Shown piece by piece: positions 3,824 to 42,732 of a stretch of 64,000 nucleotides of DNA; the stretch's first letter is position 1; each line of letters begins with the position of its first letter. Location: positions 20,589,260-20,653,259 of the forward strand of contig CM042087.1 in the NCBI GenBank assembly GCA_023512835.1, in the 5' to 3' direction. The notes under the pieces were generated by a model. The model did no database searches. It was not told the origin of the DNA and worked only from the letters and a program-made list of their open reading frames with translations. The position numbers and the translations under genes were made by a program. This DNA comes from Taxillus chinensis. Lineage: Eukaryota; Streptophyta; Magnoliopsida; Santalales; Loranthaceae.

Positions 3824-4087
3824 TGTTGGAGTGTTCTGGGAGAGGATTGCTGTTCATATTTGGCGTCCCGATCAGTGCAGAAAAGTCTAGCCACTTTGCA
3901 TCCTTCAATGCCTGAACCTTCCTCTTGAATGTTATACAATTTTCAATATCATGTCCAGCTCCACCTGTATGATATTCACATCTGGCATCTACCTTGTACT
4001 AGGCCGGTGGAGGAGTCTTTATTTCTCCCAAGGGTATAGGGGTTACCATCCTTGCCTCTAAGAGCTTGGGGTATAATTCCGCATAAG

Positions 4088-11780: not shown

Positions 11781-13147
11781 TATTGGATCAAGGCCAGAAT
11801 TTGGATAATGCTGATAAAGTCCTATGTAATTTGATTTGAGATCTTTTGTGTTTTGTCTTTAATCATTGCAGAAGATATGTTATTAATCCGGAGATACACT
11901 CGTATGAGCAAAGCTAAGGACAGGATACATAATCCTGATCCGGACGAGAGTGAGTGTCGTCAAACACTTGGTAAATAACCAAGTCCCCCCTCATACATAC
12001 GGATTAAGGAATCTGCTCTTAATACCTCAAACATACTAAGGCAAACTGATGCAGAATAAGAATCTTGATGTACAAGGTCGCACGAAGTAAAAGAGTCGAC
12101 ACGGAGTTAAAAAGTTAAGTCTTCCACTCAAGCGAACTAAAGTAAAGAAGACATGGAGTAAGGCATCCGAGTCTTCCATACATACAGAGTAAGGAAGTAC
12201 TGATGCGGAATAAGGATCCGAATCTTTATTCACACGGAGTAAGGAAACCAGATGCGGAGTAAGGAATCCAGACCACCCACTCATGCGGAGTAAGGATGTG
12301 CTAGTACGGAGTAAGCCATTCGATCCTTTAAACTCGCACGGAGTAAGAAACTCGTACGGAGTAAGGAACTTACATGCGGAGTAAGGAAGCGCTGATACGG
12401 AATAAGCACTCCGACCTTCTCATTCACACGGAGTAAGGAAGTCACGACACGAACTAAGGATTCCAGCACCAAATAGATACGGAGTAAGCAACCACTGACA
12501 CGGAGTAAGGTTCCGAGCTTCATTAGCAACGGAGTAAGGAAAATTACACCGGACCAAGAAGATGCTACTTCAACTTACCGCATTTAAAGTCATCAGCTCG
12601 TGGTGTCCCGATGTAAGACATACTCGTTGAGAACCTGAAGAATCTTACACGTGGATCACCCGGATATGTGGACACAACTTTAATTATACTTGGGAACTCA
12701 CAAAGGCACTTATACTCTTCAAACCCAAGATCTTGATCTCCACAAACCACAGCAGTCAAGGCAGAGAGATTACCGAGGAATAGTTAGTGCTGAACGCATT
12801 CCGGAACTACAAGTTCCAAGGTTATCTCTTAGGAATGTTTTTATAAATATTCATACTTGTACATTTGAAAGTGTGTGCGAGCAAGCCTGAATCAACCCTG
12901 TGTATGCACAAGAGTTCAAAGACATAATATAGGCTAGTGTGTGAATCCTTTTGTAAACAGAGTGTAAAAGAGTCTTGCTTCTATTTTGTTGTATTTATCT
13001 TTTGATAATAAAACAAAATACTTCCACTATCTGGTTATCTTCCACGTTGATTCTATCACTTAACTAGATAAGTGTTGTGTCATAAGAGAATCAAAAGAGT
13101 TTCGATAAGAGCCTATTCACCCCCCTCTAGGCTCCAAGGGACCATCA
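11781..13147 (+). repeat. 5' LTR of the Sirevirus-like element
   Basis: It pairs with 23,408-23,840 plus 42,733-43,706. The start TATTGGATCAAGG corresponds to TGTTGGATCAAGC in the 3' LTR. The end CCATCA precedes the PBS by two bases. It lacks about 40 bp present in the 3' LTR (the segment at about 23,625-23,665). A TATA-like TTTTTATAAATATT is at 12,838 and an AATAAAA polyadenylation-like signal is at about 13,007. Confidence 0.9.
12040..12545. repeat. Dispersed CGGAGTAAGG repeats inside the Sirevirus LTR
   Basis: The decamer CGGAGTAAGG, or close variants (cggaataagg, cggactaagg, cgaagtaaaa), recurs every 15-40 bp through the U3 region, with more than 15 copies. The same array is in the 3' LTR at 23,630-23,840 and 42,740-43,100. 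The spacing is irregular, so it is not a simple satellite. In U3 it could serve as clustered transcription-factor sites, which is inference. Confidence 0.8.
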
Positions 13148-13149
13148 AG

Positions 13150-13161
13150 TGGTATCAGAGC
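13150..13161 (+). other. Primer-binding site (initiator tRNA-Met) of the Sirevirus-like element
   Basis: TGGTATCAGAGC, two bases after the LTR end, is complementary to the 3' end of plant initiator tRNA-Met, the usual primer for Ty1/copia. Confidence 0.9.
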
Positions 13162-18826: not shown

Positions 18827-20418
18827 GTATGCTTGACTTCTCTGCATAGTTTCACATTTAACTTACCCAACAGTATACTTACTTTCAAAACATGCGTTGT
18901 GCTTTCATTGATAGTAGTAGATACATACTGATCTTAATGTTGATCATACTTACTGTTTAATGTGCTTCATGCTTCTGATATTGATATCAACTTCATAATG
19001 GGAGGATGTTTGCGTTTCCCGACTGAAGTCGTTTAAGCAAACATGATTAAAGTTTATATGATTAACCTCATTCTGGTTTCATGATCTTAATTTCCACTGA
19101 TCACCACATGACAAATGCCTGTTCATTTAGATTACTCTATTAACATGTATAGTTGAAGAAATGAAATGGGTTAGCTCGGAATGCCTGGTGGATGAATACA
19201 TAATCGCAGTCTGATCAGCTTCTGAAGTATAGTTTCCTAAAAAGATAGGTAGTACTGAATTTCTTTAAGCCGGAAAGGTCTACTGAGAGGATTGCACAAT
19301 CTACGGGGGAGAAAATGCCTGTTCATTTATAAATCCTGTATATGTCTCATGACCTCTTTCCTGGCTGTCTATTCAAGGAGGAGCCTTTCATTGAGAGGAT
19401 TGAATGATCTACGGGGAAGCCTAAGCTTCATCTATTACCTCAGTAATAACCCCCTAATATGTCTCAGATACTCCCTCCTCTAAACCTTTACTTCCGGATC
19501 TGACTGGACATGCATTGTTGAAACAGAATTGAGGCATGCTTGGATGTTTTTTTTTCTTCAACCATGCATTTTAATTGGATAATCAACTGCTTGCTTTTGA
19601 CATGTGTCCGCTTCCTCATTTTTCACTCATGAATCCTAGTTTGGTCAAATCATATGATTTTTAATTAATTTTAGCTACGTCGTTCAGCGGGACAGTTTCG
19701 CTATGTTGACCTATATGAACTTGTGTATTTATTATCTGACATATGCCCTGATTCAGTCACATTGATCATTCTCTAGTATGTATATGTCTATTTCATTCTT
19801 TGTAATGCATAAGTTCTGCTTCTCATTAGTTCGGATTATATAGCTCTTCACTGACTATTTTCTCCTATCCGTACTAACCCTAGCCTGTTAAGCTATTGTA
19901 CTTTTAGTTTATTTTTTTATGAAGCTACAGGTTCAGATTTTCTTTGCAACCTTATCGATAAATCTAGTCCATAGTCTTGGATTTGAAGTGTTGTGGTACT
20001 TCTCTTCTCTTCGACTTATTGACAGCAAAGGAATCTACTTCTCTCTCACCGCACTCTGTTACTACGGATACGGTCTACTTTTCATTCGGATACTCGTCAC
20101 TCGACTATCGTTGATTCTGGATGATTGTCGGTTCATTCCTCCGGACTCCTGACACTGTCAAATTGCGATAATCCATGTCTTATTATATATCGCGTGCTTT
20201 TGAGGAGGAATAATAATGATTCATTGAATGCATGTCTCGGGCTACATACACTTCCCCAGGAAGGCAAACAGCTGTTACCCTTACTTGGTCATGCCGTCTC
20301 CACGTCATTTTTTAATTCGGAGGCGCACCGATATCAAGACTAATGACATCAGCCTATCAAGCGGTTTACTGTTTCACTCGCCAAATTCCTAGACCCGCTG
20401 ACATTCACGGACTCGGTC
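18827..20418 (+). other. Non-coding spacer between pol and the extra ORF
   Basis: About 1.6 kb without a credible coding block. It contains a purine block (GGGAGGATG, near 19,001) and two related blocks, TGAGAGGATTGCACAATCTACGG (near 19,284) and TGAGAGGATTGAATGATCTACGG (near 19,391), each followed by a purine-rich GGGGAGAAAA or GGGGAAGCC. Such repeated purine blocks could be extra polypurine tracts, described for Sireviruses. The role here is inferred. Confidence 0.5.
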
Positions 20419-20540
20419 TTATATATTCTGGTCATTCCTGCGAAGCACGAGTGTTACCCTTTTCAAATCCCTAAAACTCTCATTGCTCCTTTAATCCCCA
20501 AGACCTCGCCTTCCCTCTCGCCCCTCAATTTTCATCTACA
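20419..20540 (+). promoter_or_regulatory. Candidate Pol II promoter and 5' leader of the extra ORF
   Basis: TTATATATTC at 20,419-20,428 is a good TATA box. After about 30-40 bases comes a pyrimidine-rich, purine-poor leader (CGCCTTCCCTCTCGCCCCTC near 20,508) ending at the ATG at 20,541 in the context CTACAATGGC. The layout resembles an ordinary plant gene promoter and leader inside the element. This is inference from sequence layout only. Confidence 0.4.
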
Positions 20541-23234
20541 ATGGCACCGAAAACCTCTCTTTCCGGCATCAATCCCGGCCATCTGGTCGATTGGAGCGCT
20601 GTCTCCGACCCTCCGGACTGGTTTTTCCATCTTCGTCCTCTTCTAGAAGCCTCTCACATACTCAACTTGATCTCCAATCCTGTCGATCTTCTTATAGACG
20701 ACATTCTCGAGTTCTACCAATGGATCCGCTGTACCACCGACTCCATCATCTCCTCTGTTCGCGGTGAATCCATCCTAATCAACCCCGCCGTTGTCCGCGC
20801 TGCTCTCAATCTACCCCCCGGTGAACCACAGCGCCCCGATGCTGATCCCATGGCGGCTTCTATGGGTTGCACCTATAAAGGCAAGGAATACAAGGTGAAG
20901 TCCTTCCAAGGTCGCTATCGCTGTATGGCAGTCATACTGAGTCAATGTTTACTGGCTCGCACTTCCGCTCTGGACTCTGTTCCGTACGATCTTCTTCTAG
21001 CCATGTACGGCGTTTTCGAAGGTCTTCCGATGGACTGGGGGATGTTTTTGTTCCGACTATTGCAGAATGGACCCAAGAACCATTCCTTCGGGCGCATACT
21101 AAGCATTGTCTTCCGGCATCTTCATCCGGACCATTTCGCCCGCTATGATGCTGTTCCATTTCCTCCGGCTTATTACCTTCGCTATCTTACGCCTGATGGG
21201 AACATGACGGCCCGCCGTCCTTCTGCAGCTCTCCGCCTTCTCCCTGCCATGGAACAACAAGGCAGTTCTGTTGGTGACCCCTCCGACATCCATGCCCCTG
21301 ACATCAGCTCTGCTCACCGATCCTCCCGGATTCGGTCTGTTGCTGCACCCTCCATTTCTCAAGCCTCCCAGCACAGCATCCGTGCCAAACCCTCCGAGGT
21401 TGCAGGGCCATCTCAGCGCAGTGTCCCTAAAGCTGTTTCCTCAGCCCCTTCTGCTGCAGATGTCCCTACTCCCTCCACTTCCGCTGTTGCTGCCGTGGTT
21501 GATACCGCTGTTGCTGCCGCCATTGCTGATGTCTCGAAATCTATTCCGGAAGCTCCTTTGCCTCCCCTACCTCAACCCCGAGCCTACCTTGCCCATCTCT
21601 CCGCCGACACCTTAACGGACCTTTGGGTCCTTTTCAGCCTTGCCCACACCGCCTCCATTCCTAACACCGATCTACGGGTGTTTTACACTCGCCATACTCA
21701 ATCCCCGGAGACCATGATCATCTGGAATTTGGACCAAGGCTTTCTTACGCCGGCCTCCATTCTAGATGTGCCGTTCCCTAACCCCTCCAGCCCGGTCCAT
21801 GCCGCACGGAGTCCTTCTCCTGCTAAGGCTGGACCTTCTTCTCCTGCTGTCGCCATTCCCGTTGTTGACCTATCTGGTCAAAGCGGGTCAGCTGCTCCGG
21901 ATGCCTCTGCTGCTCCGAATGCCCCTTCTGCTGCTGCTGCTGATACTCCTACGGACTCCTCTGCCCAGCGCACTCCTGCTCCTATTTATGCGGGGGAGTC
22001 CTCCAAAGCTCTAGAATTGGCCCTTGGGCGTGCTTCTTTTGGCACGGTCCACTCCAACGCTGTGCTCTCCGCCCAGCTGGACCGCCACGCCCAAGCTCAT
22101 AGCGCCCAAATATCCGCCATTGCCGCCAAGGTTGATGCTCTTGGCGCCCAACTCCTCTCCGCCCTCACCGACTCCTCCACTTCCATGGAACAGAAGATGG
22201 ACCTAGTCGCCTTGTCCGTCCACTCCTTGTCTACCTCCTTCATGGACCTGGCGCACACGATGGCTCGCCCTCCCGTTGCACCCCGGCGATCTGCCAAACC
22301 GAGGGAGAGATTGTCATCTGATCCTTCTGCTCCTCCTGCATCACATTCCTCCACTCGTGCTGAGAAGCGGCCTGCCTCTTCATTGCTTCAGGGAGTTCAA
22401 ATCCCCAAATGTAGCCGCTTCTCTCAGCCAAGCTCCTCGAGTGCAGCTCTTCCTCCATCCTCTCCATCCACAGCTGACACCTTCTTCCCATCATACGCGG
22501 CATATGACCCTCTTGATGCAGATGGAAGCGTGCGTAAGGCAATGATTTCCTATGCTGCGTCTACTGCCGAGAGAAGATGTCTCTCTGACCTGTACCCCTT
22601 TTCCCCGGACGACATTCGGACCCTTTGTTCGGAGAAAGGCCTTTTTACAACAGACGACATTGACAACTTCTCTAAGGCTGCTAAAATGGAGATGAGGTTG
22701 TTTCCATCTCTGTACAAGGACGGCCACTTGTTTAAAGTTCTGCCATGCTGGAATGAGGGCTATCTTCCCAGTGTAGATATCATTTATTCCTTTATCGATG
22801 AAATTGCTGAGGATAGCAAGCCATGGAGAACTCTCTCAACTATCCTTATTCCGTACCGGATCATGTCGCCACATTTCATGATGGGCTGTCTTCATGATTC
22901 GGTCCAAACAGATGATTCGATTGATTCTCATCGGATTGTAGAGCAAGATGTAAGAAAGAATCAATGGGAACCACTGTGTCTTAGGTTGACTGAAGCTGTG
23001 AAGAAAGCCAGATTATATGAAAAGTTGGGCATCACTCCTTTGAGTCCAACTGAGAAGCTGAAGGTGACATTCCGGGGCAAGAAGCAAGTGCCACAATAGC
23101 CAGATGGAGATAGCTGCGGGGCCTTTGTCTGTTACTTCATCAAGTCATTCTTAAGTGTGGACAAATCTTGGAGCCAACACACCACTTATTCGATGAAGCA
23201 GACAATGGAGCTTAGAGAGAAAAAGCAACAATGA
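20541..23234 (+). pseudogene. Extra ORF of the Sirevirus: plant transposon/env-like protein fused to a ULP1-like C48 peptidase
   Basis: An 852-codon open frame from ATG 20,541 stops at TAG 23,097 and would continue 44 codons to TGA 23,232. Residues 1-240 resemble the 'putative plant transposon protein' domain seen in env-like ORFs (SILINPAVVRAALNLPPGEP; YDLLLAMYGVFEGLPMDWGM). There follow a low-complexity Ala/Pro/Ser region, a helical block ending IIWNLDQGFL (about 353-405), a coiled-coil-like region (490-575) and a Ser/Pro linker. From about 650 the C-terminus matches ULP1/C48 layout: ILIPYRI, then His778 in SPHFMMG, Asp795 in SIDSH (spacing 17), VPQ, the stop at 853, and GDSCGAFVC with Cys859. 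In Ulp1 these would be H514, D531, Q574 and C580. Such peptidases cleave SUMO-like modifiers. No signal peptide or membrane segment is seen. The first two thirds are noticeably C-rich compared with pol. Start choice: first ATG after the TATA/CT-rich leader. Confidence 0.7.
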
Positions 23235-23394: not shown

Positions 23395-23407
23395 AATTGG
23401 GGGAGAT
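23395..23407 (+). other. Polypurine tract of the Sirevirus-like element
   Basis: AATTGGGGGAGAT lies directly before the 3' LTR start TGTTGG at 23,408. Purine-rich plus-strand primer site. Confidence 0.8.
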
Positions 23408-23840
23408 TGTTGGATCAAGCCCAGAATTTGGATAATGCTGATAAAGCCCTATGTAATTTGATTTGAGATCTTTTGTGTTTTGTCTTTAATCATTGCAGAA
23501 GATATATTATTAATCCAGAGATACACTCGTAAGAGCAAAGCTAAGGACAAGATACATAATCCTGATCCGGACGAGAGTGAGTGTCGTCAAACACTTGGTA
23601 AATAACCAAGTCCCCTATACATACGGAATAAAGAACATTTGTGCGGACTAAGGAACGTAAAAGCTACGGATTAAGGAATCTACTCTTAATACCTCAAACG
23701 GACTAAGTCAAACTGATGCAGAATAAGAATCTTGATGTACAAGGTCGCACGAAGTAAAAGAGTCGACACGGAGTTAAAAAGTTAAGTCTTCCACTCAAGC
23801 GAACTAAAGTAAAGAAGACACAAAGTAAGGCATCCGAGTC
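23408..23840 (+). repeat. 3' LTR of the Sirevirus-like element, left fragment
   Basis: Begins TGTTGGATCAAGC and matches 11,781 onward. It is interrupted after GAGTC (23,836-23,840) by Tekay-A and resumes at 42,733. It retains a segment of about 40 bp missing from the 5' LTR. Confidence 0.9.
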
Positions 23841-24392
23841 TGTAATGACCCGTGTGTAAGAAGTTAACCACAAATACCTTGGATGTTGGTGCACAAGTTT
23901 GAGGTAAGAGATGAGCCCAAGAGGGGACTTTTAGGAGGTGCATGTGACAAGTGATAACGTACATTTATGCCCTATGAAGATGCTATGCATATACATGCGA
24001 TTTTAAGCTGTTTTGGCATATTTTGGAGCTCACTTTTGGTATAGTAGATGGCCTCAAACAATTGGCGTGCAAGAACAAAAGTTGCTTAGAATGAGGTCCT
24101 CTATCTACCACAGAAATTTCAGAGCATTTGGAGCTACACGTGAATTCACCCATTTCCCATGCAAGCATATTTTTGCTTCTCAGACCTCTACAAGATGCAA
24201 GGAGGCTTGGGGTGAAGTTTGAGTGCATTTGGAGCTGCACGCCAATTGGGGAATTGGCGTTCAAATTGGCGTGCAGGCATGTTTTTACATGGTTACCTTG
24301 GTTTTGTCATTCTAATCATCTTTTCCCAAAGGACCATGTTGGAATTGTGAATATTTTGGTGTGTATGGATGTGGGAAGGTCATAGCTTGTTC

Positions 24393-24467
24393 CATCAAAA
24401 CTACGTCGTTTTGATGCTGGGACTTAATCAAAACTACGTCGTTTTGATGTTGTGTTGTCTATATAAG
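24393..24467 (+). promoter_or_regulatory. Twin palindromes and TATA box of the Tekay-A LTR promoter
   Basis: CATCAAAAC TACGTC GTTTTGATG (24,393-24,416) is a 9-bp inverted repeat around an ACGT-containing core. A second copy, lacking the outer bases, is at 24,428-24,448. TCTATATAAGG follows at 24,458-24,468, at a distance suiting a TATA box. In the 3' LTR the copies are at 41,318-41,341 and 41,356-41,377 (the second with one mismatch), and the TATA is changed to TATACAAGG. Confidence 0.6.
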
Positions 24468-24521
24468 GAGGAGAAGCCCCTTTGTTTTAGGTTTAGGGTT
24501 TGTTGCTCCACCATCCGTTGT

Positions 24522-24593
<72 letters not shown>
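24522..24593. repeat. (GA)n microsatellite in the Tekay-A 5' LTR
   Basis: An almost pure GA run of about 70 bp, just downstream of the TATA box, so probably in the transcribed leader. It is repeated in the 3' LTR. ORFs read through it (poly Arg-Glu or Ser-Leu) are artefacts. Confidence 0.95.
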
Positions 24594-24594
<1 letters not shown>

Positions 24595-25139
24595 AGGAGA
24601 GCTTCGGTGGTCTACGGAGCGTCTTGCGTGGGTGGTCGGAGTCTTGCGTGGAAGCGGGAGCAGGAGAACATACAAGGTAGGGGTTCTGTTCTTCTTAAAT
24701 CCTCCTCTGTCCTAGGGTTCTAGGGCAGATTATGGAGTTATACCTGTTTATATATATATATAATCTATATAGGTGTGATCTCCTATATGGATGTTGGCCT
24801 TCAATGGCAGTTTTCGATGTATTCTGGTGTTGGATGGTGAGTGCATATTAAGTGTTAGATAAAATGCCTGTGTGAATATGTCTGTGTGAATATGCCTAGT
24901 ATGTGTTTGATAATATGCCTGTGTGGCTGGGTTTGTGGGTTTGTGAATGTATGCATGTTAAGCGTTTGGTAAAATACCTGGAGACTCGCATGTCAAGTGT
25001 TTGATTTTATGCCTGATGGGCTGTGCGAACTAAGTGTTTGGTATTATGCCTGTGAAAGTGTGTATGCTACGTGTTTGGTTTAATGTCTGTGTGACCTTGT
25101 ATGCTGTGTTTGTGGAACCCGGTGGCTGTGGAAGCCCGG

Positions 25140-25340
25140 GACTGGAACTGTTAGCCTGTGTGGCTAAGCCAATATGGCTGTGGATATGTTAGCCCGTGTG
25201 GCTAAGCCTGAGTGGCCGTAAATATGTTAGCCGTGTGGCTAAGCCTTAGTGGCCGTGGATATGTTAGCCGTGTGGCTAAGCCTTAGTGGCCGTGGATATG
25301 TTAGCCTATATGGCTAAGCCTATATGGCTGTGGATATGTG
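25140..25340. repeat. 37-bp minisatellite in the Tekay-A 5' LTR
   Basis: The unit GATATGTTAGCCGTGTGGCT plus AAGCCTTAGTGGCCGTG is repeated about five times with few changes. The 3' LTR has slightly fewer units (42,060-42,260). Confidence 0.85.
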
Positions 25341-25810
25341 TGTGCCATGTGAATGTGGAATACAACTTGTTTATATTTTATTGTCACTACACTGCACCTG
25401 TACACACTCATGTAGACGCTAGGTGCATGGGATGGATTGGGAAGACATGATCCCCTCTTGAGATGTGGTTGCTCACCCCTCCCTCTATGTTGTGTTTTCT
25501 TTCAGGAACATACAGGCATTAGGTGGGACCCCAAGGTGGAAGACCTTATTGATTTTACTGTCTTCTATTTATGTTATTTTTATGGGAATTGATGTAACCC
25601 CAGTGGGGATGGATTGGAAAGAGGATTTTGTTGTAATAAAGACTAGTTTGGATTGTGGATTGCTTTTATGAACATTACTTTCTTGAATGTGTTGTGGATG
25701 TTTAAAATGTTATATTCGGGGTTTGCACCCTAACCCCTTTGCCCTCCGTGTGGGTACAAGGGGAGTCACGTACCGGTTTCCTCGGGTTGGAAATTCGGGG
25801 CGTGACAATA

Positions 25811-25822
25811 TGGTATCAGAGC
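25811..25822 (+). other. Primer-binding site (initiator tRNA-Met) of Tekay-A
   Basis: TGGTATCAGAGC, three bases after the LTR end. Confidence 0.9.
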
Positions 25823-26263
25823 ATGGTCTAGTTGGCCTAGGGTAGTGGGCGGACCTGGTTATCCTAAGTCCTTTGGAGGAGCCTGGAGGGACATACCTGA
25901 TCAACATGGTCCTCTTTGAGCCTCCAAGGTGTACTTGGGATAGTCCAGACCTGAGGTAGGATTTGCATGCATTGGCATTAGGGCACTAGTTGCATTTGCT
26001 GTGAATGGGTACAAAACTGTGGAAAATCTGAATGGTGTGATAAGGTGTGAAATGTGCAACTCTGATTTTATTTGAAGTACCTTGAGCATGACTACGAGGA
26101 AAGGTCCTTGTTTATGTGAACTGTGTGCAATGTTGATTGGTGCAATGTGTAAAATGTGTGTGATGCCATGTACTACTTGACTTGATAGTGGGGTAGAGGT
26201 AGTGAGACCCGATAATTGTCGAACGCGTTCTGACGATTGTGCTTCTTACTTCATGTAGTAAGA

Positions 26264-27342
26264 ATGCCACCGAGGAGAGTGACTCGTGCGTCCGGGCAGT
26301 GGCTGATGAGTCATCTGCCCATGAGGGCCCGGGTGTGGGGCAGTCCATTGGAGGACGTGCACTGTTGCTAGTGCAGCTGCGAGAAGGCATCCGGTTGGAA
26401 GTCCAAGAGCTGAGGGAGGGTATCCGGCAAGAAGTCCGGGAGGAGGTGCGCCGTGAGATGGCGGCACAGCAGGTGGTGCCACCACCACCGCCACCACCAG
26501 CGGGGGAGTTACCAAGGGAGCGTGAGGGTTCACTGAGTGGCATACCGACTCGTGCAGAGGATAACGTGGTGACACGGTTCCGAAAGGAACAACCTCCGCG
26601 ATTCAAAGGGGAGGAGGACCCCGTGTTAGCTGAGCACTGGCTGAGGCAGATCGAGCATGTGTTTTCCTTTCTCCTACCCCGGGAGGAGGATAAGGTGAGA
26701 TTGGCCATTCGGCAGCTGGAGGGGAATGCTCTGGAATGGTGGCAGAGTGTTGCGGGGAGCCGTGCTGTGCAGTTCATGTTGTGGGACGAGTTCCTACAGC
26801 TCTTCCACGATGAATTCTTCCCCGAGTCGTTAAGGTGGCAAAAGAGAGAAGAATTCGGTAGCCTGAAACAGGGATCAAAGACGGTGCCCAAGTATGAGCG
26901 CAAATTCCGGAGCTTGAGCAGATTTGCTCCCGAGACCGTGGCGCAGGAGGACCTGAAGGCCCACAAGTTCACCTTGGGTCTCAGGCCAGCACTTAGGCAG
27001 AGGGTGGCAATTCTGCGTTTGAGGACCTATGCTGAGGTTGTGGAGACAGCCCGAATAGCTAAGAGGGAGCTGGATGATGGGAGGCAGACCCATCAGGGTC
27101 GCCCGTTGCAGGGTGGGTTGGAGCGTGATTCCGGGTCCAAGCGGCCCAAGACTGAGGAAAGGGATAGCAGTTCTTTTCCGCAGCCGGGGACAACCATCGG
27201 TGCCCCCCAGGGAGGTCTAGCTTTGGCGGTAGCGAGACAGGGAGGCCCCGCGGAGGAGGACTCCCCGGCGGTTGTCATTGCTTGTGAGGAGCAAGGCCAC
27301 TTCAAGAGGGAGTGTCCCAAGAAGAACCTGGCGATGCAATAG
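26264..27342 (+). pseudogene. Tekay-A gag
   Basis: The likely start ATG at 26,264 reads MPPRRVTRAS, a common Tekay Gag N-terminus, but that frame shifts within about 60 bp into the long frame ending at 27,342. The long frame holds a charged coiled coil (EGIRLEVQELREGIRQEVRE), the gag fold (PPRFKGEEDPVLAEHWLRQI; LEGNALEWWQSVAG; EFLQLFHDEFFPESLR) and a knuckle remnant CEEQGHFKREC in which the first Cys pair is not intact. It would assemble the particle. The sequence between gag and protease (27,343-27,681) is open in patches only. Confidence 0.8.
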
Positions 27343-27659
27343 CCGTGGACGAGAAGGCCATTTGAGCCGGGTTTGCCGGAGTAGCAACAAGGGAGTTGGA
27401 GGCATGGCATCCAGGATGAGGAGTGACGCCAGGCCAGACACCAGCAGAGAGACTAGCTCGTCGGTGGCAAGCTAGTCGGCGCAGATCGAGTTAGACCCGA
27501 CCCCAGGGGGAGGCCGGAGCGGCAGCAGACCGAAGCTAGAGGCAACCTTAGCGGGAAGCGTCCAGGTGAGTGAGCCGACCGGTGGCACGGGCCAAGGAAG
27601 GGTGTTTGCGACCTGGAGGCGACGTACCAGGACGAGGCCGAGCTACCACCCCCACTAGC

Positions 27660-28044
27660 TGAGGGTGGAGCAGGACCATCGGTGGTTAGAGGTACTCTTT
27701 TGATCTCCCGCATGCTTGCTTCTGTTCTTTTCGATACGGGTGCATCGCGTTCTTTTATTGCTGAGCTTATAGTTGAGGGCTTAGGGTTAACGTGTGTTGA
27801 GGCGGAGAGGCCCTTAGTTGTAGAGTCTCCGGTGGGAGGTATGATTGAGGTGCGACATGTTTGTCACGGTTGTGTGTTAACCATGGGTGATGTGGAACTG
27901 AGCTTCGACTTGCATGTGTTGCCTTTGCGTACTTTTGACCTGATCTTGGGTATGGATTGGCTTATGGCTTTCCAGGCCAAGATAGACTATTACCGGCGGC
28001 GTGTATCTTTCGTGTCACCCGCAGGAACCTCTTGTACCCTGTAA
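27660..28044 (+). pseudogene. Tekay-A protease
   Basis: The active site VLFDTGASRSFI is at about 27,725, followed by the flap region and LILGMDWL at about 27,943. The frame ends at a stop after SPAGTSCTL (28,042), before RT, where uninterrupted Gag-Pol is expected in this lineage, so this copy is broken. Confidence 0.85.
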
Positions 28045-28080
28045 GGGGAGTGGGATCGTGAGGCGAGTCGAGCCGGGCCA

Positions 28081-28988
28081 GTGTTGGACCAGTGGGGTGC
28101 CATTACCCACAGGTTGGCGGCCCTGACCTTTGCTGAGGAGGGGAAGGTGGAGAAGAGGGTGTGGCCCATTGTTGTGGACCAATTTCAGGATGTTTTTCCT
28201 GAAGAGTTGAGGAGTTTACCACCTAAGAGGAGTGTGGAGTTCACCATTGAGTTGGTGCCGGGGACGGGTCCGATTTTCCAAGTAGCGTATCGTATGGGGC
28301 CAGCCAAGTTGAGGGAGCTTCAGAGGCAAATTAAGGAGTTGGTGGGCCAGGGGTATATCAGACCGAGTACCTCACCTTGGGGTGCTCCGATGCTCTTTGC
28401 TAAGAAGGCTGATGGCACGCTTCGTCTCTGCATCAACTACAGGAAGGCGAATTCGGTGATCGTGTGAAGAACAAGTACCCGTTGCCTCGGATAGATGACC
28501 TGTTTGACCAATTGAGTGGGGCCCAGTGGTTTTCCACAATAGATTTACGGTCGGGGTATCACCAGCGCAGGGTTAGGGAGGAGGACATCCCTAAGACGGC
28601 TTTTCGGTGCAGGTATGGGCATTATGAGTGGGTAGTGATGCCTTTCGGGCTCACTAATGCGCCAACGGTGTTCATGCATTTGATGAACCAGGTCTTTGCT
28701 CCATACTTGGATTCGTTTGTGGTGGTGTTTATTGATGATATCTTGGTGTATTCCAAGACCGAGAAGGAGCATGTGGAGCACTTGGTAACGGTGTTGCAAA
28801 CTTTGAGGGACCAGCACTGTTTGCTAAGTTTAGCAAGTGTGAGTTTTGGCTGCAGGAGGTTCACTTTCTTGGCCATGTGGTGTCACCGAGGGAGTTAGGG
28901 TGGACCCAGCCAAGATTGAGGTCGTGGCATCGTGGGCGAGGCCAACCAACGTTTTTGAGATCCGTAGCTTTCTTGGCTTGGCGGGCAT
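28081..28988 (+). pseudogene. Tekay-A reverse transcriptase, part 1 (interrupted)
   Basis: RT motifs: [35 protein letters not shown] (28,411), [27 protein letters not shown] and the catalytic [12 protein letters not shown] (about 28,725). A frame break lies at about 28,465 and another near 28,830. The coding sequence stops in SFLGLAG at 28,988, where Tekay-B is inserted, and continues YRRFVEGF at 38,408. Confidence 0.88.
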
Positions 28989-30954
28989 CGTCACGCCCCC
29001 GAATTCCAGGGAACCCGGAACCGGGTACATGACTTCCCTTACCCGCACCCGAAAGGTCAAGGGGTTGGTGACTAGCACCAATAGAGACTACACCGCGGGT
29101 GCTTGTCTCAAATATGCAACCCTGTACGATCATACATCAAGGGTAATCCTGTACTTTCCCATATATCATCATGCATACAAAGAGTCAAACAGTCATACAG
29201 ACATCACATCATACGGTATGCAAATACAATCGTCCACGGACCCATGTCCGGGATATCACATAAAACAATACGAATATAATCGATCATACATCGAGTAGTG
29301 GGCGTCCTCCTGGAAGAAAGTCCTCCACTAGTCTCGGGTCACACCTGAAAAGGGTAAGCAACAAGTAGGGGTGAGCGACAAGCTCAGGAGGTGACCCTAA
29401 CACTCCACATCATGCAACACATATAAGTCTATATCGTATGCTCGGTGTACTCGTGCACCGTGTGGTGTGCACAATCATCAGGACTCACCGCAACAAACAT
29501 CAGGACAACTTGTCCACGATCCTCCATGGGATCCCGGCTCAGGGCACTCGGCCCTAGCTCCACGAGCTCAACGGCTCAACTCAGGCCTTAGCCTGTCCAC
29601 GCGCAATATGCCCGGCCACGGTCGCCACACGGCTGCCATCGGTTCATATGCCCGCCACGTCAACCACATAGCACCATCGGTGCATCACGGTGAGAACCCA
29701 AACAAGTCACGGAGTCCATGCCCCAATACCTCACATCAACATACTAACATTAGTATGGCATGTCATTCTCAACATTTCCTTTAGAATTGTAGCCGGTCTT
29801 CACAAGTAAATCCTCAACCCTTGATTTATGAAGGAAGTACTCAAAGTAGCTATTTCCTTGAAATTAAAAGTTCCGAAAAAACACTGTTCACTTAGTCCCG
29901 GAAAAACACCGTTCACTTTAGTCCCGGAAACACTATTCACTTAGTCCCAGAAAAACACTGTTCACTTAGTCCCGGAAACACTGTTCACTTAGTCTCGGAA
30001 AAACACTGTTCACTTAGTCCCGAAACACTATTTACTTAGTCCCGGAAAAACTATTCACTTAGTCCCGGAAAAACACTGTTCCCTTAGTCCCGGAAACACT
30101 TGTTCACTTAGTCTCGGAAAAACACTGTTCACTTAGTCCCGGAAACACTATTCGCTTAGTCCCGGAAAAAACACTGTTCATCGTCGTTTTTGCCAATTTT
30201 CTCAGCTAGAACGGCAACCCAAAGAACCCCAAACACTCATAAACACATTTATTTTGATATACACCCCATTACACGTCTTAAATAACTCTAAATTTCATGT
30301 AATCAAGAAATACCTCTTTTATGCATTTAAATCGGAAGATTCAACCAAAAATTGGGTTTCCCCCAAATCTTAAGGTTCACCCCCAAATTCCATGATTTCA
30401 CCCAAATTAAGCATGCTAAGCCTACTATGAATCATATAAGGAGTTAGAATCACCTACCTGGAAGATTCTTTGCGATCCACGAGCTCCAATCGCCCCAAAA
30501 TCACCAAGAAAGCTCTTCACGCTCTTCACCTTCTCTCTCTCTCTCTCTCTTGCTCAAACACGCACGCACCAATAATTGGAAATTTAAGAGATAAGGCAGT
30601 TCTTAATTATATATATATACCGTTGCCAATAATTGGCCTCCCAAGAATAATTGACCCGAATGCAATAATTGACCTCCCGAGGTCACGAACTCCAAATTGA
30701 GTCAAATTATGTCAAAACGCTCGAAATAACGAGCACAACACTGTTTAGATATTATCACACTCAAATGATCGCTCAAACGCAAAGTCAACCAATAAACCCC
30801 AAAAAGTCAACAATCGGGTCAAACGGGGCCCCGACTCGAAATCGGGCCCAAGTACGGTCAAAATGCTCGCATCGACGACTACACTACCGTCCAGGATAGT
30901 TACATTCCCATAGAATGACTATCTCTCAAAACTACCCAAATACGAGTCTTTACA
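28989..30954 (-). repeat. 3' LTR of Tekay-B
   Basis: 1,966 bp, nearly identical to 36,436-38,405, with most differences being one-base indels. It contains the 22-25 bp minisatellite at 29,875-30,180, a CT microsatellite at 30,534-30,550 and an AT run near 30,608. Confidence 0.92.
29875..30180. repeat. 22-25 bp minisatellite in the Tekay-B LTR
   Basis: The unit AAAACACTGTTCACTTAGTC plus CCGGA is repeated about 13 times, with lengths alternating between 22 and 25 bp. The other LTR copy is at 37,320-37,625. Confidence 0.9.
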
Positions 30955-30972
30955 TCCTCCTCACCTTAGGAC
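30955..30972 (-). other. Polypurine tract of Tekay-B
   Basis: Minus strand CTAAGGTGAGGAGGA directly before TGTAAAGAC of the 3' LTR. TTTCGAGGACGAAAAGTC lies just upstream of it. Confidence 0.8.
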
Positions 30973-31228
30973 TTTTCGTCCTCGAAAATAAAACACAAGC
31001 CCAAAAGACATAGCAAAATCCAAGCTCAAGCACCGCACAACAACAAGACACAAAAATTATGATCATCAACATGATCACCAACCACACAGGTGCAATGCAA
31101 CTCACAACAAGCCAAAAAGGCTCACACGATGCCAGGATGCCAACCAACAAACAACAAGCTAAACCACATCTCAAACAACATATGCAAAACAAATGCATAA
31201 AACATAACTCATACCTCAGGGAAGGTCC

Positions 31229-32640
31229 TCACATCCGCCCCACCTCAGGACTGATCGTCCTCAAACAGCTCAGGATGAAGAACCCGCATCTGGCTCTCTT
31301 TTTTCCCAAGTCTGCTCCTCCATGCCTCGGTGTCGCCATAACACCCGAACTAGTGGGATCGTCTTGCCTCGCAAGACCTGGTCCCGCTTGTCCAAAATCG
31401 TGCCGGCATCTCAACAACGGCACCATCATCGCCCAAGTCTATCTCGCGATAGTCCAACACATGAGAAGGATCTGGGTGATACCGCCTCAACCGAGACACA
31501 TGAAACACATCATGTACTCGCGCCAACTCTGGTGGCAAAGCTAACCGATAAGCCACTGCGCCCACGGTGGCAACAATCTCAAATGGCCCCACAAAACGAG
31601 GGGAAAGTTTGGATCCACGTCCAAACCTCCGATGCCCTCGACGCGGTGAAACCCGCAAAAAAAACACGGTCACCCACCTCAAACCGCAAAGGTCGACGCC
31701 TCGGTCTGCGTAGGACTTCCGCTCTACTCAGTCGTTAACATGCGCGCCGAATCAATCGCACTATCTCTGTGGTCTCTCGAACCATATCGGGACCGAGAAC
31801 CGCTGTCTCTCCCGTCTGTGCCCAGGACAAGGGTGATCGACAAGGCCGCCCATACGGCGCCTCATATGGAGCCATCCCAATCGTGGCCCGATACCGTTGT
31901 TGTAAGAGAACTCCACCAAAGGAAGGTGAGTCTCCCAACAACCTCCAAAATCTAGGACACAGGCACGCAACATATCCTCGAGTGTCCGAATCGTCCGCTC
32001 CGATCGACCATCCGTCTGCGGGTGAAAGGTCGACCGAGGTTCACCCTAGTACCCAAGGCTCGCCGCAACTGTCTCCAAAACTGAGATGTGAACCTCGCAT
32101 CCCGATCAGATACAATAGATAATGGGACTCCATGCAACCGCACAATAACATCAATATACCTCTGTCCCAAAGTCCTCACTGGGTCTGTCTCTCGAATTGG
32201 AATAAAATGTGCCGATTTGGTCAACCGGTCGACAACTACCCATATCGTGTCGTGTCCCCTGGAACGAGGAAGTCCAGTGACAAAATCCATGGTCACGTGG
32301 TCCCATTTCCACTCTGGCACTGGCAAAGACTGCAACTCACCAGCGATCTCGGGTGCTCGCCTTGACCTGGCCGACAGGTCAAACACCTCCTCACAAAATC
32401 AGCAACGGCCTTCTTCAGCCTGGCCACCAAAATCGCCTCCTCACGGCATGGTACATCTTGGTCCCACCGGGATGTACGCTAACCTCGACCTGGTGAAATT
32501 CCCGAAGAACCTCCTCCTGAAGAGAAGTGGGAACTATCAGGCGTCCCCTATACCGCAAGACATGCTCTGCATCCCTGGTCCAATCGAAGGTGCCCTGGCC
32601 GGGCTCGAATCCTGTCCCTGATGACCTCACAATCAATGTC
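31229..32640 (-). pseudogene. Tekay-B integrase with chromodomain
   Basis: Minus strand. The zinc finger starts at about 32,490 (VHPGGTKMYHAVRRRFWWPG). The core 32,386-31,952 has [19 protein letters not shown] and [14 protein letters not shown], and the region with the catalytic Glu is in 32,030-31,960, shifted. The segments 31,941-31,735 and 31,682-31,350 follow ([20 protein letters not shown]). A degraded chromodomain (MEEQTWEKREPD near 31,290) is the last readable part, ending near 31,230. There are at least four frame breaks. Confidence 0.85.
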
Positions 32641-34186
32641 CCCCAACCGATCCTCTATGATCCCGTGCCGCATCTCTGGGACTGCTACAACAACACCGAG
32701 GGTCCCTCGCCCCTCACCTGGTCACCATTTGCAACCTCATCGCTACCAACCGACCCATCATCTCCCATTCCTTAATGGCACAATGGGCCACCACGGCCCT
32801 GCTCTTCCTACTCGAGCATCGCCACCACATTACCCTTCCCAAGGGGTATACATCATATCAAACCGAAACTGCATAGGTACTCCACCCACCGCCTCGTTTG
32901 CAAGGTTCAGGTCTCGTTGAGAGAAGATATCTGCAAGCTCTTGTGGTCCGTATACACCACAAACTTCTCCCCAAGGAGATAATGCTGCCACTTTTAAGTG
33001 CAAAGATCACTGCAGCCCAACTCCAAATCATGCGTGGGATAGCTCTGCTCATGTGGTCTCAATCGCCTAGACCCATAAGCAATTACCTGCCGAGTCCGCA
33101 TCAACACACAACCAAGACCCACCCTGGAAGCATCACAATACACCTCAAAAGGCACACCCTCCTGTGGGAGAATCAAGATAGGTCTTGAGGTCAATCGTGC
33201 CTTCGGCTCCATGAAAGCACTCTCACACGCATCGGACCAAATGAAAGGAACTCCCTTCCTAGTCAAGTGTGTCATAGGAGCCGCCAACCGGGAAAAATCC
33301 TCCACGAACCTCCGATAATAGCCTGCCAAACCAAGGAAGCTATGAATCTCAAACACATTCGTGGGCCTCTTCCACGACATGATCGCCTCAATCTTCTTAG
33401 GGTCCACCGTGATACCCTCCGAAGACACCACATGCCCCAAGAAGTGCACCTGTTGCAACCAGAAGCCACATTTCGTGAACTTCGCGTACAACCGATGCTC
33501 CCGCAAGGTCCGCAACACAACCTTGCAAATGCTCCTCATGCTCCCTCTTGGTCGCCGAATAGACCAAGATATCGTCGATGAACACCACAACGAACATATC
33601 TAAATATGGAGCGAACACCTGGTTCATCAATCCCATAAACACTCCTGGAGCATTCGTGAGCCCAAACGGCATCACAAGCCACTCATAATGCCCATAGCGA
33701 CAACCGAACGCGGTCTTAGGGATATCTGCCTCCCTAACCCTCAATCGATGGTATCCAGGACCTCAAGTCTATCTTGGAAAACCATCTTGCACCTCGAAAC
33801 CGATCAAACAGGTCATCGATCCTCGGCAATGGATACCTGTTCTTCACGACCACCTGGTTCAGCTTCCGGTAGTCTATACACAGCCGAAGTGAACCATCCG
33901 CCTTCTTGGCGAACAACACTGGAGCGCCCCACGGTGAGCTACTCCGCCTGATAAAGCCTCGTGCCAATAAATCATCTATCTGTCTCTTGAGCTCTCTAAG
34001 CTCTGTCGGTGCCATCCTGTAGGCCGCTAACCTGATCGGTGTTGTCCCTGGCAACAACTCGATCGAAAACTCTACCTCCCTCATGGGTGGCAAACCGACC
34101 AAGTCCTCGGGAAACACATCCAGGAACCGATCTATAATGGGTGGCAAAACAGCCTTCCCCTCTCTCCTCCTGTCAACCAACGTCAA
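32641..34186 (-). pseudogene. Tekay-B reverse transcriptase and RNase H
   Basis: Minus strand. RT part 34,186-33,734 has [33 protein letters not shown] and [13 protein letters not shown]. After a shift, 33,744-33,397 has [14 protein letters not shown] and the catalytic [12 protein letters not shown] (about 33,580). RNase H lies in 33,590-32,994, with [15 protein letters not shown] and YPTHDLEL, and its remainder to about 32,860 is shifted. The last 200 bp (32,857-32,641) is degenerate. Breaks near 33,740, 33,500 and 33,010. Confidence 0.87.
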
Positions 34187-34194
34187 GTGGCTAA

Positions 34195-34923
34195 CTAGTG
34201 GGTCACATCACCCCACCCATGCCTCAAAGGTCCCAACCTGCATGCCTCCTCGGTCCACTCACCCACAAAGACACCCCGCGTGCCCTCTGGTGTGAGGAAC
34301 GTCACACGCCGTCGAAAACAATCAATCTTGGCCTCCACGGAGATCAACCAGTCCATACCCAGGATAACATCAAAATCATCTAACTCCATGATATACAAAT
34401 CACACAACAGGTTAACACCCCCAAGTGTTACCTGACAAGCACGACGGATACTCTCAAGTATCACAATTCCACCCAAAGGTGAAGCAACCATCGAGACCGA
34501 CTCACTGTCTCCTGGTCTAACTCCAAGCCAACCACCGTAGCATACGAAATAAAAGAATGGGTAGCACCAGGTATCAATCAAAACCGAACAAATAGTATGA
34601 GAAATGATAATGGTACCTCTCACCACCGAAGGTCCTGCTCTTGCCTCGTCCACCTGGTGGAACCTCTCGCCTCTACCTGGTAAGGGCAAAAGTCCTCCCT
34701 CGTGGTCCACCGCCACTAGCCTGGCCCATTGGGGCCTTGCCCCGCTGATCAACATGACCCTGTGCCTCCCGCCGAGGCCGCCTGTGACCCGAGTCGCGTC
34801 TGCATGCTCCGTGCCGGCAGCACCGACCTCGAGACGGAGCCCCACTCCTCTCGTCCGTGATCTCTCGGACGAGGGCCTACACCGCTTTGGTTGAGCTAAG
34901 GGTAACACATTCCCTAGCTCCAT
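34195..34923 (-). pseudogene. Tekay-B protease with damaged active site
   Basis: Minus strand. Flap and C-terminal parts are clear (VILGMDWLISVEAKIDCFRR near 34,330), but where DTGAT(S) is expected the frame reads LIDTWCYPFF at about 34,570. This probably reflects small indels around the active site. It should be inactive as read. Confidence 0.8.
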
Positions 34924-36010
34924 GCCCTACTTTCCCGCATCGGAAACAGGTCATCTTTTTCCTTGGGCGGTCTCTCGAGACATGCCCGGTCAAACCACAA
35001 CTCCAACAGGTCCCTGGCCTCCCGCTGGCTGAACTCTCCCGGGGGCCCACCGCCTGGTCGGAAACCCTCTCGCACCTGCCTCCTCTCGAGCCGAGGAGCA
35101 CCGCTCTCCCCACTCGCCTCTTCTTGCTCGGACCCGCCGAACCGCCCGGCCTCTGGGCTCTCGCCCGATCCTGACCTCGCTCAATAATGATCGCCTTGTC
35201 AACCGCCTCCCGTGCTGGTCAACCGCATCGGTTCCAGCTGTCTTTTCAAAGATGGCCTCAAGCCCTGAATGAAGTCCTGCGTCTTCTGGCCTTCCTTTTC
35301 CCAAGACTCCAGGAGCAAACCGCCCCAAATTCGCGAAGGCCCGCACATACTCCCCCACACTCATGCTACCCTGCACAAGCTCATAATACTCTCTACGTCG
35401 AGCATACCGCAACGAGCCGGGAAAATACTCCCCAAAGAAGCGCTCAACAAACTCTCTCCAGCTGATCCGATCGCCATGGACAGCTCTAGTGGATTCCCAC
35501 CACCTGCGTGGGATACCCAACAAATAGTGCGTCGCCACGCGCACCCGCTCCTCATCCGGCACCCCAATCATCTCAAAGATGTCCTCTGTCCATCTAATCC
35601 AAGTCCTCGGCTACCTCTGGCCGCGAACCATCCTCAAAAGTCCTGGGTGCGTGTTTCAAAAACCGCGCAGCCCAGTCCACTCCTCGTCGTGCCGGCTCTA
35701 CCACGACCTCCTGGCCGGTGCACATCCTGCACCACCCTCGCCCCCGCTCGCTGAGGCCGTGGTGGCCGCCGAGGCTCTTGTTGCCTCTTCAGCTCATCCA
35801 CCTCTCTAGCCATATCCCTCATCGAGCCCTGCATACCCTGCATGGCCTCCTGCAATCGAATCAACACTGCGTCAAATCAGGTCCCACAACGGGAGCCGAT
35901 GACCTGGCTGCGGGCTCTGCTGCCCCTGGTGCCCCGACTCTATCGTGGGTTCCTCTGCCGGACCCTGGCCTCGGACAACCCTCCTCGGTGGTGCCATCAC
36001 ACCTGGCTAC
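34877..36010 (-). pseudogene. Tekay-B gag with two zinc knuckles
   Basis: Minus strand. The start, MAPPRRVVRGQGP, is near 36,000 and is followed by a stop. The coiled-coil part is 35,867-35,634. The gag fold is at 35,571-34,990 (LGIPRRWWESTRAVHGDRIS; FVERFFGEYFPGSLRYARRR; LVQGSMSVGEYVRAF). The knuckles are in 35,113-34,877: CWSCGLTGHVSRDRP, which lost its last Cys, and an intact CFRCGKVGHGAREC. Several shifts. Confidence 0.82.
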
Positions 36011-36420
36011 AACAACAAACAACAAACAATCAATACTAGCACCGCAAGACAAAACGACCATCAAAGGCACAACCGACTTGTAGGTTCTCACCACACGACC
36101 CGTAGGTCCATACCATGCATATAGCATCGTGTCCCCCATCAGGGTACACCACAATCAAGTCCTGGCTCTCACGGCCACGTGCCATCCTGGCACCACATAC
36201 AAGCACATCACACACAAAGACAAGCTAGTGCCCTATATGCACACAATCATACCACTAGCAATGCACCCCATCCCCATGTATGCTCCTAGGATGATCTAAC
36301 TGACACCAAAATAACCTAGAATACATGTAAGGACTGCGTTGATCGGGCGCCCCCCCTACGTTTTCCAAGTCACATGGAATCAATTAACCACCCCTCACTA
36401 ACCTAGGTCCACTAGACCAT
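36011..36420 (-). other. Tekay-B leader between PBS and gag
   Basis: No coding block seen on either strand. Its position corresponds to the 5' untranslated leader of the element. Confidence 0.6.
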
Positions 36421-36432
36421 GCTCTGATACCA
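36421..36432 (-). other. Primer-binding site (initiator tRNA-Met) of Tekay-B
   Basis: Plus-strand GCTCTGATACCA is TGGTATCAGAGC on the minus strand, next to the 5' LTR end at 36,436. Confidence 0.9.
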
Positions 36433-36435
36433 ACT

Positions 36436-38405: not shown

Positions 38406-39226
38406 GTACTATCGTCGTTTTGTCGAGGGGTTCTCCCATTTGGCAGCTCCTATGACAGCGTTGACTTGGAAGGGAGTAAAGTTTGAGTGGACTGACAAGT
38501 GCCAGCAGGTGTTTGAGACTCTCAAAACTCGTTTGACCACTGCACCTGTGTTGAGGTTGCCTAGGGAGGATATTCCGTATGAGGTATTTTGCGATGCGTC
38601 CAGGGTTGGTTTGGGGTGTGTACTTATGCAAGAGCACAGTGTGGTAGCTTATGGGTCAAGGCAGCTGAAGCCTCATGAGCAGAATTACCCTACCCATGAT
38701 CTTGAGTTGGCGGCTGTCATCTTCGCCCTGAAGAGTTGGCAACATTACCTTTTGGGGGAGAAGTTCGTGGTGTTCTCGGATCACAAGAGCCTTAGACATC
38801 TTTACTCGAAGGACTTGAATTTGAGGCGAGAGGAGATGGGTGGAGTATTTGCAGACCTTTGACTTTACTCTTGCCTATACCCCGGGCAAGGGTAATGTTG
38901 TGGCTGACGCGTTGAGCAGAAAAGGGAAAGCTGAGGTGGCCGTGAGAGAGTGGAAGCTGATGGAGCAGTTGGCGATGTTGCAGCAGCAGCCTGTTGTTCG
39001 TGATGGTGGGACAGTCCTAAGTCCTTTGGTGGTTGTGCCTGAGTTGTACCAGCGTGTCCGGGAGGAACAGATGGGTGATATTAAGTGTGAGGTTCTCCGT
39101 GCCCGTATTGAGGCTGGGGAGCTATCTGAGGACTGGACAGAGAGTCCTGAGCATGAGTTGTCTTTTCAGGGGCGGTTGGTAGTGGCTTCTTCCCTCAGGG
39201 ATGAGGTGATGAGGGAGTTTCACTAG
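38406..39226 (+). pseudogene. Tekay-A RT end and RNase H, part 2
   Basis: Resumes the RT connection after the Tekay-B insertion ([18 protein letters not shown]). RNase H has [15 protein letters not shown] (about 38,590), [16 protein letters not shown] and [14 protein letters not shown] shift at about 38,845 leads to [20 protein letters not shown] (38,863). The segment ends at a stop at 39,226, next to the integrase zinc finger. Confidence 0.88.
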
Positions 39227-40597: not shown

Positions 40598-40775
40598 TGT
40601 GTATTTGTGACATGCGGATATGTGTTGTTATGGATTATGGTGGTACCTTGTTATGTGCTGTTATGTGCTGTGCGCGGTGTATGACCCATTTGGGTGTTGT
40701 GGCTCACCGTGTGGCAAATGGGTAGCTTGTGTTTGTTTTCCTCATATGTCATTTCTTTTCGAGGACGAAAAGTCT

Positions 40776-40789
40776 TAAGGGGGAGAGGA
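40776..40789 (+). other. Polypurine tract of Tekay-A
   Basis: TTAAGGGGGAGAGGA directly before the 3' LTR. It is preceded by TTTCGAGGACGAAAAGTC, a stretch also present at the same place in Tekay-B. Confidence 0.85.
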
Positions 40790-41450: not shown

Positions 41451-41527
<77 letters not shown>

Positions 41528-42727: not shown

Positions 42728-42732
42728 GAGTC

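What the first reader, a model, noticed from the sequence alone, without database searches (positions are those of the whole stretch)
20541..23234. A Sirevirus extra ORF that ends in a ULP1/C48-type cysteine peptidase
Seen: His778 and Asp795 spaced by 17 residues, and GDSCGAFVC with Cys859, preceded by VPQ, in the order and local context of the Ulp1 catalytic triad; the N-terminal 240 residues look like the plant transposon/env-like domain. Known: ULP1-like genes have been carried by MULE DNA transposons (Kaonashi type), and Sireviruses often have an env-like ORF of unknown role. Inference: this copia element carries a SUMO-protease-like protein in the env position, which would be a route to act on host SUMOylation or silencing factors. 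I do not know of a described Sirevirus family with this fusion.
Basis: partly seen in the sequence, partly recalled or inferred. Interest (0 to 1): 0.9.

Follow-up and report, generated by a model that had tools for sequence, protein, structure and literature searches.

The report
Retrotransposon gene ending in SUMO-protease-like domain
A plant copia-type jumping gene carries an extra gene whose tail looks like a SUMO-removing protease, but in this copy a stop codon cuts the protein just before the catalytic cysteine; such tails are known in other kinds of mobile DNA.

Summary
The ORF is real and lies in a Sirevirus-type Ty1/copia element: 5' LTR 11781-13147, gag-pol, linker, extra ORF, polypurine tract, and a 3' LTR split by a later Ty3/gypsy insertion. 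Its C-terminus resembles a ULP1/C48 cysteine peptidase: His778, Asp795 and Cys859 align with the catalytic triad of SENP1/SENP2/Ulp1. The Pfam C48 match covers only 34-35 residues around the Cys: 19.9 bits with the stop as X (cut-off 20.7), 23.3 bits with it read as Gln. The N-terminus is only weakly Transposase_32-like. I have one copy: protein and viral-contig searches found no relative of the ORF, and the host-genome search did not complete. Extra 3' ORFs are usual in SIRE elements, and Ulp1 domains are known in MULEs, Ginger1 and some non-LTR elements; ten paper searches showed no LTR-retrotransposon case. Best reading: a Sirevirus lineage acquired a ULP1-like tail in its extra ORF, paralleling MULE KIU proteins, and this copy is nonsense-mutated. 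Function is inference.

The parts
11781..13147 (+). 5' LTR of the Sirevirus-type element (starts TA, where the 3' LTR has TG; ends CA); CGGAGTAAG box x11, TATAAATA at 12842, C-rich signal at 13118
13148..13161 (+). intervening AGTGG plus primer binding site TATCAGAGC
   Evidence: published Sirevirus junction in PMC2829016
13131..18826 (+). gag-pol remains: eleven open pieces in three frames; copia gag, CCHC knuckle, Pol_BBD, gag-pre-integrase, integrase core (below cut-off), SH3 and RVT_2 by Pfam; RNase H by eye only
18827..20540 (+). linker without a long ORF
20541..23099 (+). extra ORF, 852 aa: weakly Transposase_32-like N-terminus, low-complexity middle, start of a C48-like domain with His778 and Asp795; ends in TAG
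23100..23234 (+). continuation of the same frame after the TAG: 44 codons with GDSCGAFVC (Cys859), then TGA
23398..23407 (+). terminal polypurine tract TGGGGGAG plus AT before the 3' LTR
23408..23840 (+). 3' LTR, first part
23841..42727 (+). Ty3/gypsy element inserted in the 3' LTR (LTRs 23841-25807 and 40790-42727; duplication GAGTC at 23836-23840 and 42728-42732); not part of the finding
42728..43706 (+). 3' LTR, second part (its first five bases are the gypsy target duplication)

Best explanation
A Sirevirus-type copia element whose 3' extra ORF encodes an accessory protein with a Transposase_32-like front, a low-complexity middle and a ULP1/C48-like cysteine peptidase tail. Most likely mechanism (inferred): in intact copies the protein is made from its own message, the front brings it to element or host chromatin or to the virus-like particle, and the tail removes SUMO or a similar tag from proteins there to the element's benefit, in parallel to the Ulp1-bearing KIU proteins of MULEs. 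In this copy the activity is lost to a nonsense codon before the catalytic Cys. Shown: element anatomy, ORF, stop, triad-like residues in register. Inferred: expression, SUMO specificity, target, benefit, existence of intact copies.
For: Position between RT and PPT/3' LTR in a structurally complete element. An 852-codon frame beyond chance. C48 match at the Cys block and hhalign over 152 columns with His and Asp in register, reached by 2 of 400 shuffles; MAFFT puts all three residues in the catalytic columns. No frameshift and one stop in 2.7 kb of this ORF, while gag-pol lies in three frames. A Tanacetum copia protein carries PF20167 behind its RT (P0055). Ulp1 domains in other elements (passages).
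Against: One copy, and it is truncated. PF02902 is below its cut-off unless the stop is read as Gln, and nothing is found in the pieces apart. The hhalign score comes from the Cys block: 130 of 400 shuffles score as high. MAFFT puts His and Asp in register in 28 of 400 shuffles. Pairwise, the triad comes into register with SENP1 (score within its shuffles, 83 of 500 as high) but His and Asp do not with SENP2 or Ulp1. Asp-Cys spacing is 64 against 49-53. The pre-stop piece alone: no Pfam or PDB match, hhalign probability 0.2%, useless fold (pLDDT 35.6). No relative in the protein searches. PF20167 is weak.
Confidence: 0.5

Rival explanations
1. One-off capture: this copy or a small subfamily picked up a host or MULE-borne ULP1 gene piece, fused it by chance to the extra ORF, and it has no role for the element.
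For: Only one copy in hand; no relative; base composition of the ORF (GC 0.537) differs from gag-pol (0.424) and linker (0.39); the tail is already broken.
Against: The frame runs on from the Transposase_32-like front to the C48 tail without a frameshift, which an accidental fusion need not give.
Confidence: 0.17
2. The tail works without peptidase activity (a binding or structural remnant), or the TAG is a leaky stop that lets a small share of product carry the Cys, as stop suppression makes the SIRE1 env-like protein.
For: Stop suppression is reported for SIRE1 (cited in PMC2829016, passage); the frame stays open for 44 codons after the TAG.
Against: In SIRE1 the stop lies between pol and env, not inside a domain; the bases after this TAG do not fit the readthrough motif that I recall; the rest of the element is decayed too.
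Confidence: 0.13
3. The C48 resemblance is chance or convergence at one short motif, and the extra ORF is an unrelated fast-evolving SIRE extra ORF.
For: The Pfam match spans 34-35 residues and is below cut-off with X; the pre-stop piece alone shows nothing.
Against: His-Asp block pattern in 144 and Cys block pattern in 121 of 200,000 shuffles, all three residues in 2 of 200,000 (patterns written after seeing the sequence); hhalign register in 2 of 400.
Confidence: 0.13
4. The ORF belongs to a MULE or other DNA transposon (KIU-like) that landed in the linker of the copia element.
For: Ulp1-bearing MULEs are known in plants (PMC13317346 passages).
Against: No inverted repeats of 16 nt or more bracket it (target duplications not tested); no long ORF in the linker; 173 bp from TGA to the 3' LTR; no DUF1985 match in the ORF. 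The review calls KIU-bearing MULEs non-TIR, so this is not excluded.
Confidence: 0.05

Closest known systems
SIRE/Sirevirus extra 3' ORF (eORF-3'F, 'env-like')
   Same: Place and sense between pol and PPT/3' LTR; 74% of SIRE elements in PMC6317226 have such an ORF, in 19 groups without mutual similarity (passages)
   Different: A C48-like tail; none is mentioned in the passages that I saw, and the paper's table of domain hits in extra ORFs (a supplement) could not be read here
KIU: VANC genes of VANDAL MULEs with a Ulp1 domain
   Same: A transposon accessory protein with a Ulp1 domain (PMC13317346 passages)
   Different: DNA transposon; VANC proteins have DUF1985 (PMC5735166 figure legend), no match here
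Ginger1 transposases with a C-terminal Ulp1 domain
   Same: Ulp1 domain as C-terminal tail of a mobile-element protein (PMC2836005 passages)
   Different: The tail is on the transposase of a DNA transposon in animals, not on a separate extra ORF
NeSL and Utopia-1_TSP non-LTR retrotransposons with a Ulp1-like protease
   Same: Ulp1-like domain in a retroelement (PMC4640811 passages)
   Different: Non-LTR elements of nematodes, domain at the N-terminus of the RT protein
SENP1, SENP2 and yeast Ulp1
   Same: Order His, Asp, Cys; His-Asp spacing 17; PQ..G..CG.F block
   Different: Phe instead of Trp after the His, Asp-Cys spacing 64 instead of 49-53, stop inside the Cys motif

Membership tests
Sirevirus (SIRE lineage) | 5' LTR/PBS junction CA-A(T/G)TGG-TATCAGAGC | tested here: met
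   CA-AGTGG-TATCAGAGC at 13146-13161 (PMC2829016)
Sirevirus (SIRE lineage) | Terminal PPT AGGGGGAG ten bases before the 3' LTR, then AT and TG | tested here: inconclusive
   TGGGGGAG-AT-TG at 23398-23409: place and attachment site fit, seven of eight PPT bases
Sirevirus (SIRE lineage) | Several identical PPTs near the 3' LTR (average four) | tested here: not met
   No exact AGGGGGAG; NGGGGGAG only at 19304, 21991 and 23398. A usual feature in the paper's set, not the phylogenetic definition
Sirevirus (SIRE lineage) | C-rich integrase signal near the LTR end and TATA box in the LTR | tested here: met
   CACCCCCCT at 13118 and 43677; TATAAATA at 12842 and 43401, later in the LTR than the middle given in the paper
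Sirevirus (SIRE lineage) | RT groups with SIRE in a tree | not tested
   RVT_2 at 220.6 bits shows copia; no labelled references were at hand
Peptidase C48 (PF02902) | Pfam match above the curated cut-off | tested here: inconclusive
   23.3 bits with the stop read as Gln, 19.9 with X, none in the pieces apart; cut-off 20.7
Peptidase C48 (PF02902) | His and Asp of the triad in register | tested here: met
   hhalign 152 columns, 2 of 400 shuffles; MAFFT also, but 28 of 400 shuffles; pairwise global with SENP1 but not with SENP2 or Ulp1
Peptidase C48 (PF02902) | Catalytic Cys in the encoded protein | tested here: not met
   TAG six codons before the Cys codon in this copy
Peptidase C48 (PF02902) | Ulp1 fold | tested here: inconclusive
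   Pre-stop piece folded alone: pLDDT 35.6
Peptidase C48 (PF02902) | Cleaves SUMO or a related tag | not testable with these tools
   Needs an assay on a natural intact copy
Transposase_32 (PF20167) | Pfam match above the curated cut-off of 45 bits | tested here: not met
   18.2 bits, E 0.0024, residues 42-176
KIU / VANC of VANDAL MULEs | DUF1985 and a MULE around the gene | tested here: not met
   No DUF1985 match; no bracketing inverted repeats

The most novel reading that the evidence does not exclude
Some Sirevirus 'env-like' ORFs are not envelope genes but anti-silencing or SUMO-editing factors: a plant-transposon front joined to a ULP1-type peptidase, arrived at independently of the KIU/VANC proteins of MULEs, so that retrotransposons and DNA transposons converged on the SUMO pathway of the same hosts.
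Probability: 0.2. Interest if true: 0.8.

Novelty: new variant of a known kind. Interest (0 to 1): 0.5.

Why it matters
What the extra 3' ORFs of Sireviruses do is an open question; the passages I saw call their function speculative or not proven (PMC6317226; PMC2829016). A ULP1-like tail would give one group of them a biochemistry that can be tested and a parallel with KIU proteins of MULEs.

Tried and rejected
Relatives. Whole ORF against the protein collection: the 7995 candidates sharing most words were scored, none at E 0.001; at most 100 words are used and the ORF is rich in Ser, Ala and Pro, so this is a weak negative. Residues 660-852: 564 candidates, none at E 10. Control with the RT piece: 7992 of 7992 scored candidates at E 0.001, with named plants among the 120 rows listed, so the collection holds plant elements; of those 120 rows one (P0055) carries PF20167 and none PF02902. 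Viral contigs: no relative of the ORF or of the RT piece. tblastn in the window: only the ORF itself.

Structure. AlphaFold of the pre-stop piece, one sequence: pLDDT 35.6, so no fold search was made. PDB by sequence: pre-stop piece nothing at E 10; with X at the stop seven chains, the best an Hsp40 (SIS1, E 0.47), then SENP1 (E 0.79 and 0.8).

Considered. A nested MULE: no bracketing inverted repeats, not excluded. A membrane protein: one borderline hydrophobic stretch, residues 313-331, mean hydropathy 1.62, Ala-rich; no membrane predictor was run. dN/dS and an RT tree were not done, for want of copies and labelled references.

Full report
WHAT IS THERE. The window holds a Ty1/copia element of Sirevirus type. 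The 5' LTR is 11781-13147 (1367 bp). The 3' LTR begins at 23408, is interrupted after 23840 by a later Ty3/gypsy element (23841-42727, with its own LTRs and GAGTC on both sides) and resumes at 42728-43706. The target duplication of the Sirevirus reads GTTGC / GCTGC, four of five bases alike. The LTR parts differ at 19 of 393 and 25 of 979 aligned sites, gaps left out, about 3%. With a rate recalled as 1.3e-8 per site and year this is of the order of a million years.

LINEAGE. PMC2829016 (passages) lists Sirevirus landmarks. Found here: the junction CA-AGTGG-TATCAGAGC; a PPT with seven of eight bases, followed by AT and TG; a C-rich signal in both LTRs; a TATA box in both LTRs; and a repeated box with a CGG core (CGGAGTAAG, 11 copies in the 5' LTR, 9 in the resumed 3' LTR). 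Against: no cluster of several PPTs; the box is not palindromic and has no copy in the linker, unlike the env-bearing elements of that paper. Pfam finds copia gag, a CCHC knuckle, Pol_BBD, gag-pre-integrase, SH3 and RVT_2, and an integrase core at 30.7 bits, below its cut-off of 32.6. RNase H is recognised by eye only; its two pieces gave no Pfam match. No RT tree was made.

THE EXTRA ORF. It starts at 20541 (ACAATGGC around the ATG), 1.7 kb after the RNase H remains, and is open for 852 codons, which is beyond chance. The frame then goes on for 44 codons, with GDSCGAFVC, to a TGA. The peptide with the catalytic Cys is therefore not part of the normal product of this copy. gag-pol is worse off: eleven open pieces in three frames.

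IS THE TAIL C48? With the stop read as Gln, PF02902 scores 23.3 bits against a cut-off of 20.7; with X, 19.9 bits, E 7.1e-4; the two pieces apart give nothing. Each match covers 34-35 residues around the Cys. For the rest I used SENP1, SENP2 and Ulp1. An HMM of the three scores 13.4 bits on the X-joined region, 7.7 on the post-stop piece and nothing useful on the pre-stop piece. MAFFT puts His778, Asp795 and Cys859 in the catalytic columns and the stop in the conserved motif before the Cys; with the part before the Cys block shuffled, His and Asp still fell in place in 28 of 400, so this alone is modest. In pairwise global alignments His, Asp and Cys came into register with SENP1 (83 of 500 shuffles scored as high), only the Cys with SENP2 (1 of 500), and none with Ulp1 (100 of 500). 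hhalign aligns 152 columns with His and Asp in register, E 1.7e-4, probability 49%. Its score is reached by 130 of 400 shuffles, since the Cys block carries it, but 2 of 400 reach 150 columns and 2 of 400 have His and Asp in register. The N-terminus of the ORF as a control gives probability 0.8%, the pre-stop piece alone 0.2%. Pattern shuffles (144, 121 and 2 of 200,000 for the His-Asp block, the Cys block and all three residues) used patterns written after seeing the sequence. I judge a diverged C48 domain likely, about 0.85, not proven.

THE FRONT. PF20167 (Transposase_32) matches residues 42-176 at 18.2 bits, far under its cut-off of 45. A Tanacetum coccineum copia protein (P0055) carries PF20167; its stretch behind the RT aligns weakly with the front of this ORF (18% identity over 168 columns, E 0.004 for the single comparison). 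Such fronts may thus occur in other copia elements. The ORF at 10570-11583, just before the place where the element landed, shares 20% identity over 84 columns with residues 337-416 (E 0.007 for the single comparison); it may be an extra ORF of another element.

HOW IT MAY WORK. This is inference. VANC proteins of VANDAL elements counter silencing (PMC5735166 and PMC10398659, abstract openings in the listing), and some carry a Ulp1 domain (KIU) whose own role is called unknown (PMC13317346 passages). A front that targets and a tail that removes SUMO would let an element edit proteins at its own loci, or partners of the particle or of integration. Nothing here tests expression, localisation or activity. 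PMC2829016 reports stop suppression, splicing and an internal promoter as proposed ways to express such ORFs (passages); the linker of 1.7 kb speaks against simple readthrough from pol here.

WHAT IS KNOWN. In PMC6317226, 74% of SIRE elements carry an extra 3' ORF, in 19 groups without mutual similarity (passages). Ulp1 domains are reported in MULEs of plants and animals, in Ginger1, and in NeSL and Utopia non-LTR elements (passages). Ten full-text searches showed no Sirevirus or other LTR-retrotransposon with one. Limits: searches listed 20 of 59, 69 and 54 papers; I saw passages of eight papers, and a ninth, PMC7264820 on additional ORFs, held none of the six terms asked for; supplements were not readable; the library holds open-licence papers only. 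Hoen et al. 2006 and van Leeuwen et al. 2007 were seen only as cited.

VERDICT. Observation partly confirmed; interpretation partly supported; a new variant of a known kind, resting on one broken copy.

Noticed in passing
23841-42727: Ty3/gypsy element nested in the Sirevirus 3' LTR: LTRs differ at 60 of 1927 sites, about as much as those of its older host element; gag at 26239-27339, SH3_Tf2-1 at 39653-40594.
   Followed up: partly
28990-30954 and 36437-38405: Direct repeat pair (about 98% identical; 24 of 1960 sites differ) inside the gypsy element, with tandem repeats; looks like LTRs of a further nested element. A minus-strand RVP_2 protease ORF lies between (34198-34923).
   Followed up: partly
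10570-11583: 338-aa ORF just before the Sirevirus insertion, with weak similarity (20% over 84 columns, E 0.007) to the middle of the extra ORF; no Pfam family above its cut-off.
   Followed up: partly
46087-48077: Two ORFs with sub-cut-off matches to zf-C17orf113 and DUF4371; from recall this looks like a hAT-type transposase remnant.
   Followed up: no
2019-4942: Minus-strand ORFs with Retrotrans_gag (4091-4942) and G-patch (2022-2870) matches above cut-off.
   Followed up: no
58699-59229: Minus-strand ORF with a copia SH3_retrovirus match (66.8 bits), a piece of another copia element.
   Followed up: no
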